Assembly (NCBI GenBank): GCA_947447825.1
Contig: CANFLL010000004.1
Location: forward strand, 1-64,000
Length of the DNA stretch: 64,000 nucleotides
Source: Chitinophagaceae bacterium
GTDB taxonomy: Bacteria > Bacteroidota > Bacteroidia > Chitinophagales > Chitinophagaceae
Direction of reading: 5' to 3'
The position numbers and the translations under genes were made by a program. The notes beneath the pieces were generated by a model that worked only from the letters and a program-made list of their open reading frames with translations, did no database searches and was not told the DNA's origin. This document shows positions 13,950 through 57,933 of the stretch, piece after piece (the stretch's first letter is position 1; every line of letters starts with the position of its first letter).

Positions 13950-15188
13950 TTGGTTATGAGTGATTATTTAACATTGGCAGAAGCTTCAGAATTTATAGGG
14001 AAGAGTAAGGAAACCCTAAGACGTTGGGATAGAGAAGGAAAGCTAAATGCTGTCCGTGAACCAATGAGCAACTATAGGGTTTACAGAAAAGCAGAAGTAT
14101 TGTCTTTGTTTTCTGACTTTGTTACGCCGGATATATCTGAATCTATTTCAAACTTTGTTCTTCCCGATCACGGATATACTGTATTGGAGTTGTTTGCAGG
14201 TGCTGGAGGGCTAGCTGTAGGAATAGAAAAAGCAGGATTGAAATGTGTTGCACTAAATGAATTGGACAAATGGGCTTGTCAAACTCTTCGGAATAATCGA
14301 CCGAATTGGAAGGTGTTGGAGGGAGATATAAAGTCCTTCAATTTTGAAGAATACCATAATAAGGTAGATGTCGTAACTGGTGGATTTCCTTGTCAGGCAT
14401 TTAGTTATGCAGGCAAAAAGTTAGGATTGGCAGATGCGCGAGGCACCTTGTTTTATGAGTTTGCACGTGTAGTGAAAGAGGTTAACCCACCAATATGTAT
14501 TGGTGAGAATGTACGTGGGTTATTGAGTCATGAAAATGGAAAAACATTGCAGGGTATGGTTTCTATATTGGACGAGATAGGTTATAATGTTGTTCCTGTT
14601 CAGGTATTAAAAGCTATTAACTATAAAGTTCCCCAAAAACGGGAACGATTAATCTTGGTAGGAATTAGAAAAGATATTGGCTTAAAATACGAATATCCTA
14701 AGCCTTATAAAATGATTTATAACCTAAAGGATGCCCTTAAAAAAGGCGAGCTATTTGATACAGATGTTCCATTGTCCGAAGGTGTAAAGTATCCTAAGAG
14801 CAAAAAAGACGTGTTAGACTTGGTGCCACCAAAAGGATATTGGAGAGACCTTCCATTACATATTCAGAAAGAATTTATGGGGGGAAGTTTTCACCTTGGT
14901 GGAGGTAAGACAGGTATTGCTAGAAGGATTGGATGGGACGAGCCTTGCCTTACCCTAACTTGTAGTCCTGCCCAAAAACAAACAGAACGTTGCCATCCAG
15001 ATGAAACAAGACCTTTTACAGTAAGGGAATACGCCCGCATACAAACCTTTCCCGACGATTGGCAGTTTCATGGTTCAATGGCTCAACAATACAAACAAAT
15101 AGGAAATGCCGTTCCTGTAAACTTAGGAAGGGAGGTTGGTTATTCTATTATCCAGTTTTTAAATGAATACTATAAGATTAAAAAGTAA
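13950..15188 (+). CDS. DNA (cytosine-5) methyltransferase with N-terminal MerR/excisionase-like HTH
   Basis: LELFAGAGGLAVGIEKAG, GGFPCQAFSYAGKK, ENVRGL, QIGNAVPV motifs; N-term LTLAEASEFIGKSKETLRRWDREGKL. Confidence 0.94.
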   Translation: MVMSDYLTLAEASEFIGKSKETLRRWDREGKLNAVREPMSNYRVYRKAEVLSLFSDFVTPDISESISNFVLPDHGYTVLELFAGAGGLAVGIEKAGLKCVALNELDKWACQTLRNNRPNWKVLEGDIKSFNFEEYHNKVDVVTGGFPCQAFSYAGKKLGLADARGTLFYEFARVVKEVNPPICIGENVRGLLSHENGKTLQGMVSILDEIGYNVVPVQVLKAINYKVPQKRERLILVGIRKDIGLKYEYPKPYKMIYNLKDALKKGELFDTDVPLSEGVKYPKSKKDVLDLVPPKGYWRDLPLHIQKEFMGGSFHLGGGKTGIARRIGWDEPCLTLTCSPAQKQTERCHPDETRPFTVREYARIQTFPDDWQFHGSMAQQYKQIGNAVPVNLGREVGYSIIQFLNEYYKIKK

Positions 15189-15891
15189 ATAATGGTGAGG
15201 TTCTTATCTCATTAGCTAAATCACTACATCCTTTTTCAAAGAAATCTTGTGTATCAAGTTCCAAGATACTTAGATTCAGTGCTACAACAAGTTGATCATA
15301 GAACCTAATATATCCAGTTACCCTATGCCAAAAATCCCTACCTATCAGTACGGGATGGGCGGCATCTATTTTTCTGTAATGCATACTCAATTCAGATGGC
15401 TCACCATATAAAACACCTACAATAAAGTCCGAATTGCTAATGCCAGATAGTGCCCTGTTAGTTCTAGCTAGGTTAATTGTGTCGGTAAACTTTTTGATAA
15501 GTGGGTTAACATCTTCCGAGTTAATAGTATTAGGGCCAGATTTCAATTGACACCATTTCTTTCTTGAATCAACTTTGTCTATAAACTCAATATCCATCCC
15601 CTTTATCATTGAACCTTCAGCAATGCCTAAATCAATGAACATACTTTGAATTCTTGTTCCAAAAGAAGTATTGATAGACGTACCAAGAACCCTAGGATAA
15701 TACAATGCTTTTGCAATTCCTTCTGGACTAAACTTTCCATCCAATACCTTTGACAAGTATTTTACTACGATTGGATTTATGTTGTAGGACTTTAGTTTAG
15801 AATGTGTTTTAAGTGAAGAATTGATATGTTGTTCAAAGATATTTTCTTTAAAATATCCCACAATCTTCAGCGTAAGTTCTTGTTCTGTCAT
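15178..15891 (-). CDS. Type II restriction endonuclease, possibly Eco47II/PmeII-like
   Basis: 237 aa, convergent with and overlapping the 3' end of the C5-MTase; KGMDIEFIDKVDSRKKWCQLKSGPNTINSEDV compatible with a D-(E/Q)xK nuclease core. Confidence 0.7.
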   Translation of the reverse strand: MTEQELTLKIVGYFKENIFEQHINSSLKTHSKLKSYNINPIVVKYLSKVLDGKFSPEGIAKALYYPRVLGTSINTSFGTRIQSMFIDLGIAEGSMIKGMDIEFIDKVDSRKKWCQLKSGPNTINSEDVNPLIKKFTDTINLARTNRALSGISNSDFIVGVLYGEPSELSMHYRKIDAAHPVLIGRDFWHRVTGYIRFYDQLVVALNLSILELDTQDFFEKGCSDLANEIRTSPLFTF

Positions 15892-16254: not shown

Positions 16255-16577
16255 TTGGTGTTTTGCGTATAGATGTGGTGAAGAACGCCAACTTCGACAA
16301 ATGGAAACACCGAAAGCTTCATGCTTTCTGGAAGATGCAATAACTCTCTTCCATCTCCCTCAAAAAACTATTTCAAATTTAATTAGGTTTTATCGAACTT
16401 TCCTTTGAACCTTCACCAGAATTAAAAACTGACTAATTACTAAAACATAAAACGTTGCTTTATGAACACATTAGTAGCTTACAAATTTCTTCTTTGCAAC
16501 GTCCGAAATAGCTGCTATTCAACGGCAGTAATCATTACACAGCTTCAACTAGATGGTTAAAAGGCTTTTTTGCTTCC

Positions 16578-16760
16578 AAGAACAATATCATTCTTAGTAA
16601 GAACAATATCATTCTTGGCAAAAACAATATCATTCTTAGTAAGAATGATATCATTCTTAGTAAGAACAATATCATTCTTGGTAAGAACAAATTCATTCTT
16701 GATAAGAACAATATCATTCTTGGCAAGAACAATATCCTTCTTGGTAAGAACAATATTCAG
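16578..16760. repeat. 21-nt-period palindromic array 1
   Basis: 8 units plus a partial one of AAGAACAATATCATTCTTGGT; one unit has the perfect palindrome AAGAATGATATCATTCTT. Confidence 0.95.
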
Positions 16761-16826
16761 GAAGGGAAAAAGTAAATTGCAATTAACCTCTTTTACATAC
16801 TCGTTTAATCATTAAATTTAAAAAAA

Positions 16827-31277: not shown

Positions 31278-31901
31278 CTAATTTGCCGCCCTTGTTATTG
31301 GTGCACTATAATTTCTTCTTGGATCTGTGCCACAAGCCGCCATTTTAAAAACATAAGGAACAAAACTTGGCAAACCATCAATTTCTAAAGAGTGAGAAGT
31401 AGTTGTTTTTGTTACCCAAACACTTGCATCCGTTGCAGGATGAGGCGTAAACAATATTTCATAAAACTTGGCCTTAGGCATTGCTTTGCAACTAGCCAAC
31501 ACCTTATTACTAGCCTGTTGCGTAACAACATTAAAACCAGTAACCACTCCAAAAGCACCAATTTTAGCTTTTGAAGCCGCTGTGTGCATTCCTGCCGACA
31601 AAATTTTTGTTTCGTCGCCACCGCTAGTCAACTGCACATACGCACACTCCACGTGAATCATACCTTCCAAAATTTTCCGTTCATCATCTTTATCAGACGT
31701 TTGCGTTGGCGTACCATTATGAGCCAATGCTAATTTTCCCTGAAATTTAATCCGCTGTGCCGTAATTACCGTTAACGCAGGCGAAGGCGTTGCGTAGGTT
31801 GCGATACTTGCCGCCATCTTCGTTTCTATACTTTCCACTTCTATCACAAACTCAGGGTCTGTGTAAGTGTCTATCGAATAATTAATTAGAACATCTGCCA
31901 T
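31278..31901 (-). CDS. Hypothetical protein, N-terminal helical region plus C-terminal FN3-like domain (paralog of 56802-57422)
   Basis: LTSGGDETKILSAGMHTAASKAKIGAFGVVTGFNVVTQQASNKVL...SFVPYVFKMAACGTDPRRNYSAPITRAAN. Confidence 0.85.
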   Translation of the reverse strand: MADVLINYSIDTYTDPEFVIEVESIETKMAASIATYATPSPALTVITAQRIKFQGKLALAHNGTPTQTSDKDDERKILEGMIHVECAYVQLTSGGDETKILSAGMHTAASKAKIGAFGVVTGFNVVTQQASNKVLASCKAMPKAKFYEILFTPHPATDASVWVTKTTTSHSLEIDGLPSFVPYVFKMAACGTDPRRNYSAPITRAAN

Positions 31902-31989
31902 TTTATGATTTTTTTAAAAGAATGAAAATAATCCGTTGAAAGTAGTCTTATTGTAACGGGTAATTAAAATTTTATTTCGTAAGAACCCT

Positions 31990-32178
31990 ATTTACTTGAT
32001 GACGAAAACCAAAAACTTCATCACTTAATCGAAAAAGTTCATCATAAAAAACATTTTCTTCATCAAATAATTATGGAACTTCATCAAAAAAACCAAAAAC
32101 TTCATCAAGTATTTGGAAAACTTCATCAAGAAAGTCAAATACTTCATCACTTTTTTCAATTACTTGATGAAGTTTTTG
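31990..32178. repeat. 21-nt-period palindromic array 2
   Basis: 9 units of 21 nt centred on ACTTCATCAAG(T); first and last units read the opposite way (TTGATGA). Confidence 0.93.
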
Positions 32179-32245
32179 AGGATTGGTAAGCTATATTTGA
32201 CTTTCGGATATAGGAATAGGACAACATTTACAAATAATTTAGACT

Positions 32246-33172
32246 ATGGTTATCAATCAAATAAAAACTAAGAAAGGGTGCTGCTTGGTGCTTTTAATAC
32301 TGGGAATGAGTTTTTCTGTAAGAGGATTTGGACAGACAATTTACAAGGGATTTATAGGCGTGTATCCAATTGAGTTGGTTATAGATGATTTTTATGGTGA
32401 TAAAGAAATAACGGCAGTGTATTCTTACATGAAATTCTGCGACCCGATTCCAATTAATGGTGAGCATCATAAAGATTCATTAATACTTTATGAAAAGGAC
32501 AAGAATTGTAAAACATCAGCCATTCTACTATTCGATAAATATGATAAAAATGCTAAAATCATTGAGGGGACATGGAAAAATTTATCAACTAAAAAAGAGC
32601 TCAAAATAACTTTGAAAAAGGATTATGAAATTGAAGATGCTTATGCAGATAGCATTGAATGGAAGAATAGAGAAATATTGCAACCTGTTTCGCTAGAGGA
32701 TTATTATTTTAAAGTTGTTACTTCAAAAGAAAAGAATGCATACGGTGTTGTAACTGGAGTAAAAATATTTCAAAAGGGTACTGGACAATTAGTTCAAACG
32801 CTAAAGGCAGATGAATGTGAAATTAAGAGACTAAATAGCATTTATATTGGTGATTTTAATTTTGATGGGATAGAAGACTTTTCTCTTTTTCAATCTCATG
32901 CTGGTGCTGGTCCAAATACTTCATTTATGTATTTTTTGTTTAACCCCAATACAAAAAAATTCTTTGATTCAAAATTTGGGGGTACTTCATTAGAGTTTGA
33001 TTCAAAACGAAAGAGAATTTATGAAATGAATTCATGTTGTGCAGGTCATAATCAAACCACCGCAGAATATAAAGTTGTAAATAATAAAATGGTTTTATTG
33101 GAAGAACATTGCTGGATTTGGGATGAGAAAAAGCAAGATATGGTAGAAAGAAAAATGAAAGATTGCCGTTGA
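32246..33172 (+). CDS. Secreted hypothetical protein, XAC2610-like C-terminal region
   Basis: Signal peptide; IYIGDFNFDGIEDFSLFQSHAGAGPNTSFMYFLFNPNTKKF...KRKRIYEMNSCCAGHNQTTAEYK. Confidence 0.7.
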   Translation: MVINQIKTKKGCCLVLLILGMSFSVRGFGQTIYKGFIGVYPIELVIDDFYGDKEITAVYSYMKFCDPIPINGEHHKDSLILYEKDKNCKTSAILLFDKYDKNAKIIEGTWKNLSTKKELKITLKKDYEIEDAYADSIEWKNREILQPVSLEDYYFKVVTSKEKNAYGVVTGVKIFQKGTGQLVQTLKADECEIKRLNSIYIGDFNFDGIEDFSLFQSHAGAGPNTSFMYFLFNPNTKKFFDSKFGGTSLEFDSKRKRIYEMNSCCAGHNQTTAEYKVVNNKMVLLEEHCWIWDEKKQDMVERKMKDCR

Positions 33173-39139: not shown

Positions 39140-40882
39140 ATGCACTCAAAACACCTCAAGCAACTCTGTCTCATTACTGTTCTACTATTAGGAAGTACGC
39201 TGTTGTCGGTGTTTTTAATTCTTTTATCCCTCGATAGAAATGAACTTATTGCGCATATCATCCGCCTAACCAATAAACCCTATTTGCTCAATCTATTATC
39301 TAATAAAATACTCACTCCGCAAAAGTTTACAATCCTAAGATACGGTTTGCAGGTCTCAATTATTCTTGATTGTATAACAATTGCCTTATTGTATCGTTTT
39401 AGAAATGGGGTATTGTCGTTACTGAATTTTATTTTTTCTACCATTAAAAATTGTTTTGGTGCTATCAGCCTTGCGCATAATACAAGAAAAGAAAATATAC
39501 TTCTACTCATCATACTGGCAATTGTATTTTTAAAAGGATTGTATTACATTCTATCATTCGATTTACAATATGATGAAATGTGGAGTTACAATTACTTCAC
39601 TTCTCGCCCCGTTTATCTTATTTTCTTTAGTTATAATAACTATCCGATTTACGAACTAAGTACGCACCTGTTTAAATGGCTGCCTTTTTCTATGAAGGTG
39701 AACCTACGATTACCCCCTTTTTTGATGGGGATATTTTGCATTTTCGTGTTATTTGGTTGCACAAAAAAGATTACGTCACACTTTCTCACCGCCCTTGCAA
39801 GCGTCGTATTATTTGCTTGCATGCCCGTTTCGGTGTTTTACATGTTGTATGCACGAGGGGTAATGTTCGAACTTTTCTTTGCCGTTACAGCATTTTTTAG
39901 TCTTGTATTTCTTGTAAAAACTCAGCAAAAGAAAAAGTATTTGTTTCTATATGTTGCCTCAAACGTGTTAGGAGCGTATTCCATGCCTACTCATTTGTAT
40001 TTCTGGGCAGTGTTTTCTTTGGTATCATTTCTTTATTTTATCCTTTATCAAAAATCAGTAATAAAGTCTATCTTACTAAGCAATTTTCTAATCCTAGCCT
40101 TAATCGTATTGTGTTATTTGCCAGTATTTTTTGGCTCTGGATTGTCGTTTGTTTTTGGTGCACTTACAGATACCTCTCAATCCACAAATCTATTTGCCAA
40201 CACAATTGCTTACACCAAAGGCATCAATAACTTCTTTACTGGCAATGTTTATGGTTTGGTAATTCTATCTTTTATGTCTTTTGTCTTTTTGTTTTTATAT
40301 AAAACAGCGGATTACAAATACCTATTTACATTGCTACTGGTTAACCTATTTATCTTTTTGCCAAGTATAATCTATCTATTTCAACGTGTATTTATCCCCG
40401 AAAGAGCTTTGGCTTTTATTGGCTTAGTAATTCCTTTTTTAGGATGCACGCTATTTTATTTTACAAAAAATTCTCTCAAACAATATCAACAGTATTGCAT
40501 TCTTGCAATTGTTTTTATTGCTGGTTGCGCCATCAGTCATCGGCATGAATACCTAAATTGGAGTGTTCAAAAAGACAAGGATGCCATTAAGCTTTCTACC
40601 CTTTTTTTAAAGAATAAAATAGAGACTTGCTATGATAATTCGCCCACTTCCGAGTTCTATTATTTCTATCCAGCTTTAGAATATTATTTTAGTCAGCAGA
40701 AAAAAACTATCAACTTTAATATGGCGGAACCTAATAGTCAGCGATATAAACCATTACTTTCCACAGATAATTTTGATTGCATTATAGATAGCATTTATGC
40801 CAATGAAGAACCAAGAAGAGTAAAGTATAAAAAGATATTTACTGATAATGCTTATGGATTTAAAGTGTGGCGGTTGAAATAA
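39140..40882 (+). CDS. Multi-pass membrane protein, GT39/ArnT-like glycosyltransferase
   Basis: LQYDEMWSYNYFTSRP motif after TM helices; KVNLRLPPFLMG. Confidence 0.75.
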   Translation: MHSKHLKQLCLITVLLLGSTLLSVFLILLSLDRNELIAHIIRLTNKPYLLNLLSNKILTPQKFTILRYGLQVSIILDCITIALLYRFRNGVLSLLNFIFSTIKNCFGAISLAHNTRKENILLLIILAIVFLKGLYYILSFDLQYDEMWSYNYFTSRPVYLIFFSYNNYPIYELSTHLFKWLPFSMKVNLRLPPFLMGIFCIFVLFGCTKKITSHFLTALASVVLFACMPVSVFYMLYARGVMFELFFAVTAFFSLVFLVKTQQKKKYLFLYVASNVLGAYSMPTHLYFWAVFSLVSFLYFILYQKSVIKSILLSNFLILALIVLCYLPVFFGSGLSFVFGALTDTSQSTNLFANTIAYTKGINNFFTGNVYGLVILSFMSFVFLFLYKTADYKYLFTLLLVNLFIFLPSIIYLFQRVFIPERALAFIGLVIPFLGCTLFYFTKNSLKQYQQYCILAIVFIAGCAISHRHEYLNWSVQKDKDAIKLSTLFLKNKIETCYDNSPTSEFYYFYPALEYYFSQQKKTINFNMAEPNSQRYKPLLSTDNFDCIIDSIYANEEPRRVKYKKIFTDNAYGFKVWRLK

Positions 40883-41132
40883 GGCTAACCAAATGCGACA
40901 AAAGCCTAAGCAAATGCCGCATAAGGTTGAACAAATATGATATAAGGTTAACCAAATGCGACAAAAGCCTAAGCAAATGCCGCATAAGGTTGAACAAATA
41001 TGATATAAGGTTAACCAAATGCGACGAAAGGCTTCCCAAATGCCGCATAAGGTTGAACAAATGCGACAAAAGTTTAGCCTAATGCCACATAATGTTAACC
41101 TAATGCCACATAAGGTTAGCCCAATACGACAC
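40881..41132. repeat. 21-nt-period array 3
   Basis: 12 exact 21-nt units (AAGGTTAACCAAATGCGACAA type); a 63-nt trimer is duplicated (40881-40943 vs 40944-41006, about 1 mismatch). Confidence 0.95.
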
Positions 41133-41155
41133 ACCTTTGAACATTTAAGCCTAAA

Positions 41156-45979: not shown

Positions 45980-46210
45980 GAACCGGTTGAACATGTTTAA
46001 AAAAAGCTTTTTTAGCGTAATGTTCAGTTGAACGAGGTTTGCGTGAGGGCTTACGAAACTTCCGTTCAACTGAACTTATCTTCCGTGAGGGCTTACCGAG
46101 TTTCCGTTCAGCCGAACGAGGTTTCCGTAAAGGCTTACGGAACTTCCGTACGACTGAACATTTCCTCCGTAAGAGCTTACCGAACTTCCGTTCAATTGAA
46201 CTTATCTTCC
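45980..46210. repeat. 21-nt-period palindromic array 4 (9 clear units 46022-46210, 2 degenerate units before)
   Basis: Alternating GTTCA[RY]TGAAC and GTAAG[AG]CTTAC palindromes; degenerate units carry AACCGGTT and AAAAAGCTTTTT palindromes. Confidence 0.95.
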
Positions 46211-46313
46211 GAAAGGCAGTATAAACTTAAAAACTAAGTCTATATTAATGAATATGATTGATTAAAAGTTTCTCTTTTCAATCAAAAATTCATCTAGCTA
46301 AAATTGAAAGCTT

Positions 46314-56801: not shown

Positions 56802-57422
56802 TTAGTTCGCAGCTCTCGTTATTGGTGCGCAATAGTTTCTTCTTCTATCAGATCCACGAGCTGCCATTTTAAATACATAAGGAACAAAGCTTGGTAAATT
56901 TTCTATTTCTATGGAATGACTGGTAGATGTTTCAGAAATCCACACACTTGTAGCTATTGCTGGATAAGCGGTGTACAATACTTCATAGAAACCAGCTTTT
57001 GGCATAGGATTGCAACTGCACAACACTTTATTACTTGCTTCTTGTGTTACTACTTTAAAATTAGTTACTACTGCAAATACCCCAATTTTAGCTTTAGAAC
57101 CTGCTGTGTGCATTCCTGATGATAATATCTTGGTTTCATCACCACCACTTGTAAGTTGAATGTACGCACCCAATACGTGCATTTGCCCTTCTATAACAGC
57201 CCTTTTATCATTCTTATCAGAAGTGTCTGTTGGTGTTCCATCTTTAGCCTTTGCCACAGCAGTCTGAAACAATATACGCTCAGTAGTTATTGCTGCAACT
57301 GCGGGCGATGGTGTTGGAAAGCTTGAGTTGGGTGAAAGATGCGTCTCAATACTTTGCACTTCAGTTATTAATCCATCGTCAGTGTAAACGTCTCTTGAAT
57401 AATCAACCAGTACTTGTGACAT
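56802..57422 (-). CDS. Hypothetical protein with FN3-like C-term domain (paralog of 31278-31901)
   Basis: LTSGGDETKILSSGMHTAGSKAKIGVFAVVTNFKVVTQEASNKVL...SFVPYVFKMAARGSDRRRNYCAPITRAAN. Confidence 0.85.
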   Translation of the reverse strand: MSQVLVDYSRDVYTDDGLITEVQSIETHLSPNSSFPTPSPAVAAITTERILFQTAVAKAKDGTPTDTSDKNDKRAVIEGQMHVLGAYIQLTSGGDETKILSSGMHTAGSKAKIGVFAVVTNFKVVTQEASNKVLCSCNPMPKAGFYEVLYTAYPAIATSVWISETSTSHSIEIENLPSFVPYVFKMAARGSDRRRNYCAPITRAAN

Positions 57423-57532
57423 GACATTAATGATTTAATAAATGAAAAATAATCGGTTGAAAGTAGTCTTATTGTATCTAGCAATACTAGTTAGTTTACC
57501 AGAACAGGCATTTCAGACGTAAAATGGTTATA

Positions 57533-57742
57533 ATAATCACCAATATTATCAATATCTGTATCAAGATTATCATAATCGGTATACCGATGGAAACAATCTG
57601 TATAAAGATTGCCATCATCTGTATACAGATAGTCACCATATTCATACAGATGATGGCAATCGGTTGAAAGATATTGATGATATTGATACCGATTATCGCC
57701 ATCGGTATGAAGATATCCATAATCGGTAAGCCGATATTGGCT
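57533..57742. repeat. 21-nt-period palindromic array 5
   Basis: 10 units of 21 nt, 14-nt palindromic core plus 7-nt spacer; perfect cores ATCGGTATACCGAT and ATCTGTATACAGAT. Confidence 0.95.
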
Positions 57743-57933
57743 TTAGTTATTGATTGGATAATAAAAGATGACTTTATATTTTATTATCCATAGAAGAGGA
57801 AGGAAAAAGGTTTAAAAATATTTAAGTATATGATTATCAATAAATTAATATCAAATAAAGGTTATTGTACAGTTTATTTAATAGTTGTAATGTTTAGATA
57901 GATTAGCAGATATGGAAAGATTATGTTTGATAA

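What the first reader, a model, noticed from the sequence alone, without database searches (positions are those of the whole stretch)
57533..57742. Array 5: compensatory changes within 14-nt palindromes and a 7-nt modular grammar
ATCGGTATACCGAT and ATCTGTATACAGAT differ by paired G-to-T and C-to-A changes that keep perfect symmetry. Other units look like combinations of 7-nt half-sites (ATCGGTA, ATCTGTA, ATCTTNA, ATATTSA) plus a 7-nt spacer. A 17-nt inverted repeat (ATTGCCATCATCTGTAT at 57608-57624, ATACAGATGATGGCAAT at 57644-57660) spans whole units. Selection on symmetry or gene-conversion-like inversion is implied.
Basis: seen in the sequence. Interest (0 to 1): 0.8.

Follow-up and report, generated by a model that had tools for sequence, protein, structure and literature searches.

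The report
Genome-wide palindromic 21-bp repeat arrays
The palindromes are real, but their two halves change independently rather than in compensating pairs, and the array is one of several hundred 21-base, mirror-symmetric repeat arrays scattered between genes in one genus of freshwater bacteria, most likely rows of binding sites for paired DNA-binding proteins.

Summary
The sequence facts are correct: ten 21-bp units (14-nt palindrome plus 7-nt spacer) at 57533-57742, and the 17-nt inverted repeat (18 nt exact). The "compensatory change" reading fails. Half-sites match their own partner no better than any other unit's partner (shuffle p = 0.37). Against a sister species, 16 dyad pairs changed on one side and none on both. 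The 7-nt grammar is local to this family: lag-7 and lag-14 signal is zero over 115 arrays.

What is there is larger. The genome carries about 64 such arrays per 864 kb (roughly 340 extrapolated). They have exactly 21-bp period, mostly 7-11 units, lie in intergenic gaps, and half are significantly two-fold symmetric. They fall into many unrelated motif families, occur across an unnamed Chitinophagaceae genus and are nearly absent from other genera. Consensus positions evolve three times slower than spacers between species. Array position can persist while the motif turns over almost completely.

Best explanation (confidence 0.42): rows of half-site-recognised sites for dimeric DNA-binding protein(s), one per two helical turns, evolving as bacterial satellites. 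The binder is unknown. RNA hairpins, REP/RAYT elements and MITEs fit worse for array 5.

The parts
57533..57742 (.). Array 5: ten 21-bp units, half-site consensus ATCKKTA as a 14-nt dyad plus variable 7-nt spacer
   Evidence: ATC and GAT ends nearly invariant, spacers near random
57607..57661 (.). 18-nt exact inverted repeat (57607-57624 / 57644-57661) including two spacers; possible inversion between palindromic units
   Evidence: p = 0.015 against column-shuffled arrays
57434..57476 (-). Conserved 5' flank of the 206-aa gene with a Bacteroidetes-like promoter (TACTTTCA), shared at 91% with the flank of array 3 (31913-31955)
   Evidence: promoter call is by eye
56802..57422 (-). 206-aa gene (helical N-terminus plus Fn3 fold); homologues in the genus nearly always have a 21-bp array upstream
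57811..57861 (+). Right flank, matching the 5' end of the 308-aa gene downstream of array 3 (32227-32277); here only a truncated remnant of that gene
31973..32183 (.). Array 3 (CTTCATCA family), at the paralogous gene pair, with a different unit sequence
16552..16780 (.). Array 1 (AAGAACAATATCATTCTTGGT), dyad-symmetric
40855..41152 (.). Array (GACATAAGGTTAACCAAATGC), fills a convergent gap
46008..46228 (.). Array (alternating TTCCGTAAGNNCTTACGGAA and CGTTCANNTGAACG units)

Best explanation
Array 5 is one of about 340 intergenic arrays in this genome. Each is a row of usually 7-11 two-fold-symmetric sites spaced exactly 21 bp apart, that is two helical turns, so that all sites face one side of the DNA. 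Shown: period, symmetry, independent drift of the two half-sites, slower evolution of consensus positions than spacers, unit gains and losses in steps of 21 bp, and turnover of the motif at a conserved position. Inferred: each site is bound by a protein dimer, one monomer per half-site, and neighbouring dimers cooperate along the array. Unequal exchange or slippage spreads new unit variants through an array, as in eukaryotic satellites, so motifs diverge quickly while spacing and symmetry are kept. The cellular role (local nucleoid or topological organisation, or regulation of nearby genes) is not determined. The lack of preference for promoters or terminators favours a structural role.
For: Period 21 dominates: 33 arrays in 464 kb against 0-4 at other periods from 15 to 27 (28 scores only through 84), and 31 against 0-1 in another 400 kb. 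53% of 115 arrays are dyad-symmetric at p < 0.02. Half-sites vary independently, as expected for per-monomer recognition and not for hairpins. Variation is concentrated in spacer columns (array 5 p = 0.004; 49% of 103 arrays p < 0.01), and consensus columns diverge threefold more slowly between species. No strand bias of mismatches: 372 G/T vs 374 A/C. Unit number is peaked at about 9, not piled up at the detection floor of about 5. The array upstream of the 206-aa gene family persists across paralogues and species with different motifs. Arrays flank ordinary genes with no orientation bias.
Against: No binding protein was identified. Dozens of unrelated motif families would need many specificities or a binder that tolerates any symmetric core. 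No universal motif was found. Some arrays show little or no symmetry (16% with p > 0.5). An extra class of exactly 41-bp arrays is unexplained. Array homogenisation could contribute to the slower evolution of consensus columns.
Confidence: 0.42

Rival explanations
1. Neutral or selfish satellites: hairpin-prone units slip and expand during replication, palindromes promote the expansion, and no binding is needed.
For: Indels between sister species are multiples of 21 bp; direct duplications within arrays are far above column shuffles (27.7 vs 12.1 nt); fast motif turnover; arrays fold better than period-preserving permutations (median z -2.7).
Against: Does not explain the exact 21 bp without 19, 20, 22 or 23, the peak near 9 units, the slower evolution of consensus columns, or persistence upstream of one gene family.
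Confidence: 0.28
2. Classical regulatory operator arrays: each motif family is the regulon of one transcription factor with about ten sites per target.
For: Families recur at unlinked loci; some arrays lie just upstream of promoters, as at the 206-aa genes.
Against: No enrichment in divergent or upstream positions; flanking genes are an ordinary mix with no shared function; orthologous genes 93% identical carry arrays with different motifs.
Confidence: 0.15
3. RNA hairpin arrays (transcribed stem-loops, terminators or regulator-binding RNA).
For: Both strands of array 5 fold strongly; some arrays end within 40 bp of a start codon.
Against: No within-unit covariation, no overall G-U excess on either strand, no orientation bias, no Rfam hit.
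Confidence: 0.06
4. One reading: compensatory selection or arm-to-arm correction keeps each palindrome perfect.
For: Two perfect palindromes with different cores and an inverted spacer pair.
Against: Perfect palindromes no more frequent than with shuffled half-sites (p = 0.35); 16 one-sided and 0 two-sided changes between species; 72-array test shows no excess over units two steps apart.
Confidence: 0.03
5. Array-bearing miniature transposons (MITE-like) spread the arrays.
For: The TGAGTCA family lies inside a ~700-bp dispersed element with terminal inverted repeats AATTCTACTTTGACA.
Against: No such repeats around array 5 or other families (mean longest inverted flank 9.3 vs 9.2 in controls).
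Confidence: 0.06

Closest known systems
REP / BIME / REPIN elements with RAYT transposases (PMC3733652, PMC3116915)
   Same: Hundreds of short palindromic intergenic repeats per genome, sometimes clustered, species-specific families
   Different: No GTAG/CGTC tag or other common motif, strict 21-bp tandem spacing with about nine units, no preference for downstream positions, Y1/RAYT-type genes not enriched in the genus
Heptanucleotide intergenic repeats, e.g. TAACTGA in Beggiatoaceae, Cyanobacteria and some Bacteroidetes (PMC4679880)
   Same: Abundant tandem intergenic repeats next to unrelated genes; 7-bp arrays also occur in this genome
   Different: No 7-nt periodicity inside the 21-bp arrays; two-fold symmetry; many motifs instead of one
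Iterons and partition-site arrays of plasmids (own knowledge)
   Same: Direct repeats of about 21-22 bp, two helical turns apart, bound cooperatively by a protein
   Different: Hundreds of chromosomal loci, no linked rep/par genes seen, sequence differs between loci
Eukaryotic satellite arrays such as centromeric repeats (own knowledge)
   Same: Unit length conserved while sequence turns over by concerted evolution
   Different: Short (~200 bp), intergenic, hundreds of loci, bacterial

Membership tests
REP/BIME/REPIN | Conserved GTAG or CGTC tag / common REP motif | tested here: not met
   No motif shared across 131 arrays beyond small families
REP/BIME/REPIN | Associated RAYT (Y1) transposase | tested here: inconclusive
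   Y1_Tnp 0-7 per genome in the genus, 0-9 in relatives outside it; physical linkage to arrays not tested
REP/BIME/REPIN | Mostly downstream of genes (tandem and convergent gaps) | tested here: not met
   27 tandem / 18 divergent / 8 convergent, like all gaps of 200 bp or more
Heptanucleotide repeats | 7-bp unit | tested here: not met
   Zero excess at lags 7 and 14
MITE | Terminal inverted repeats around the element | tested here: not met
   Not met for array 5; met for the separate TGAGTCA family
RNA hairpin element | Covariation between stem arms | tested here: not met
RNA hairpin element | Strand-specific G-U tolerance | tested here: not met
   372 G/T vs 374 A/C mismatches overall
Dimeric protein operator array | Two-fold symmetric sites in helical phase with conserved contact positions | tested here: met
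Dimeric protein operator array | A protein that binds the sites | not testable with these tools
   No candidate found; the linked 206-aa protein folds as helices plus Fn3, not a DNA-binding fold
Iterons | Linked replication initiator and origin | not tested
   Hundreds of chromosomal copies make it unlikely

The most novel reading that the evidence does not exclude
A bacterial satellite system: hundreds of motif-exchangeable, dyad-symmetric arrays in strict two-turn phase, maintained at fixed intergenic positions and read by a binder (or a rapidly co-evolving family of binders) that demands spacing and symmetry rather than one sequence, acting in chromosome organisation.
Probability: 0.22. Interest if true: 0.88.

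Novelty: new variant of a known kind. Interest (0 to 1): 0.66.

Why it matters
About 1.5% of the genome (estimated from ~340 arrays of ~200 bp) would be devoted to a genus-specific, precisely phased repeat system not found in the searched literature. It would be a compact model for how repeat arrays keep spacing and symmetry while their sequence turns over, a question mostly studied in eukaryotic centromeres, and would point to unknown DNA-binding factors.

Tried and rejected
Compensatory arm changes; 7-nt grammar; RNA structure; RAYT enrichment; general MITE origin (only the TGAGTCA family is MITE-like); a universal array motif; promoter or terminator bias; shared function of neighbouring genes; the 206-aa protein as the DNA binder (Fn3 fold). 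Paper searches for 21-bp intergenic arrays in Bacteroidetes or Chitinophagaceae found nothing relevant; only an open-access library was searched. Two flagged contigs (L169 G008, L179 G019) scored at every control period and were ignored as artefacts.

Full report
1. The observation. The array at 57533-57742 is ten units of exactly 21 bp: a 14-nt dyad (outer ATC...GAT nearly invariant) and a 7-nt spacer. All quoted sequences and coordinates are right. Symmetry beats period-preserving permutations (z = 4.2, p = 0.005). The inverted repeat is 18 nt exact and unusual for the column composition (p = 0.015), while direct repeats are not (p = 0.28), which is consistent with one inversion between palindromic units. 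Folding z-scores of about -8 follow from a symmetric periodic consensus and do not by themselves indicate a functional fold.

2. The compensatory claim fails. Dealing right half-sites at random among units gives the same arm agreement (49 observed, 47.4 +/- 3.4 expected, p = 0.37) and about the same number of perfect palindromes (2 vs 1.2, p = 0.35). Across 72 symmetric arrays, a left arm matches the right arm of its own unit (0.586) no better than that of units two steps (0.586, 0.579) or four steps away (0.58, 0.585); odd offsets are lower because many arrays alternate two unit types. In sister genome G004 (MnmG 99% identical; about 90% nt identity around the locus), array 5 and a second array of the same family show 16 one-sided changes and no two-sided change in 133 dyad pairs; 8 broke and 6 made a pair.

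3. A genome-wide feature. The window alone has five arrays with exactly 21-bp period and five different sequences. In 864 kb of this genome 64 arrays were detected, against 0-4 per half for other periods, so about 340 per 4.65 Mb by extrapolation. The lag spectrum has peaks at 21 and its multiples, a separate class at 41 and its multiples, and heptamers at 7/14. Unit number peaks near 9 (median 8.9, IQR 6.8-10.3). 53% of 115 arrays are dyad-symmetric at p < 0.02. Arrays fall into small motif families; the array-5 family recurs at L084 19775 and L085 13427. Lags 7 and 14 show no signal, so the 7-nt grammar is only the 14+7 layout of this family.

4. Distribution. Members of the same unnamed Chitinophagaceae genus (G001-G004, G006, G007, G010, G011) carry about 4-15 arrays per 100 kb in the stretches sampled. 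Other genera of the family gave 0 in about 180 kb (artefact contig aside) plus 0 in 280 kb, and there were 5 in 1.41 Mb of other Chitinophagales loci, close to the rate of control periods.

5. Constraint and turnover. Within arrays, variation is concentrated in some columns (array 5 p = 0.004; half of 103 arrays p < 0.01). Between species, conserved columns changed at 3.8% and variable ones at 11.1% (Fisher p = 7e-5; five arrays, four against G004 and one against G006). Indels between orthologous arrays are multiples of 21 bp. Yet motifs can turn over: the flanks of array 5 match those of array 3 (91% and 76%) but the units differ, and G001 and G007 have other 21-bp palindromic arrays at the same place relative to the gene. 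Orthologues L188 (own) and L213 (G004) are 93% identical in protein while their arrays are barely above chance similarity (0.47; null 99% point 0.47), whereas array 5 is 0.96 similar in the same two genomes. Weak similarity (0.5-0.6) among several arrays of the array-5 gene group suggests common descent with fast concerted change.

6. Gene context. Arrays sit in tandem, divergent and convergent gaps in the same proportions as all gaps of 200 bp or more, beside ordinary genes such as dnaK, secA and rplM. The one strong association is with a 206-aa family: most of its members in the genus have an array upstream of the start, and the three homologues from outside the genus do not. The predicted fold is helices plus a fibronectin-type-III domain (mean pLDDT 89.5, pTM 0.53), so it is probably a neighbour, not the binder. 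Some of this association is inherited through gene duplication and is not independent evidence per copy.

7. Mechanism. Exact two-turn spacing, two-fold symmetric consensus, independent half-sites and constrained consensus positions point to rows of sites for dimeric DNA-binding protein(s) aligned on one DNA face. Satellite-like exchange explains unit gains, losses and motif turnover. The binder and the benefit are inferred, not shown. The strongest rival is a neutral satellite driven by slippage of hairpin-prone units; it has difficulty with the exact period, the peaked unit number and the constrained columns.

8. Limits. Genes were called with a simple ORF picker; genomes are fragmented; arrays under about five units are missed; the constraint test uses five arrays and cannot fully exclude array homogenisation; the literature searched is open-access only.

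Noticed in passing
L087 13585-14309; L112 11740-12445; L108 15920-16621; L121 2244-2814; L125 15579-16133; L118 5730-6329: A ~700-bp dispersed noncoding element with terminal inverted repeats AATTCTACTTTGACA and a TGAGTCA-type 21-bp array in its middle; 6 copies in 864 kb of this genome (MITE-like).
   Followed up: partly
L110 15680, L114 11880, L125 8500, L129 2570, L143 12420, L146 19030, L154 2640: A second class of tandem arrays with exactly 41-bp units (not 40 or 42), some with long palindromes (GCACGATAGYRYTATCGTG); also 62- and 83-bp arrays.
   Followed up: partly
window 56802-57422, 31278-31901 and homologues L186-L216: Genus-enriched 206-211 aa Fn3-like protein family whose members nearly always have a 21-bp array just upstream of the start codon.
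   Followed up: partly
window 15178-15891: EcoO109I-like type II restriction endonuclease gene (Pfam E = 2e-21) on the other side of array 1.
   Followed up: no
L100 10716-10798, L234 9427-10310, L157 473-604: Heptamer repeat arrays (TAACAAC, GTGAATG, AACTGAT types) resembling the TAACTGA repeats described for Beggiatoaceae, Cyanobacteria and Bacteroidetes.
   Followed up: no
L085 7602-7843 versus L160 75-392: Upstream of the same gene two sister species have 21-bp arrays of unrelated sequence although the adjoining DNA is 90% identical.
   Followed up: partly
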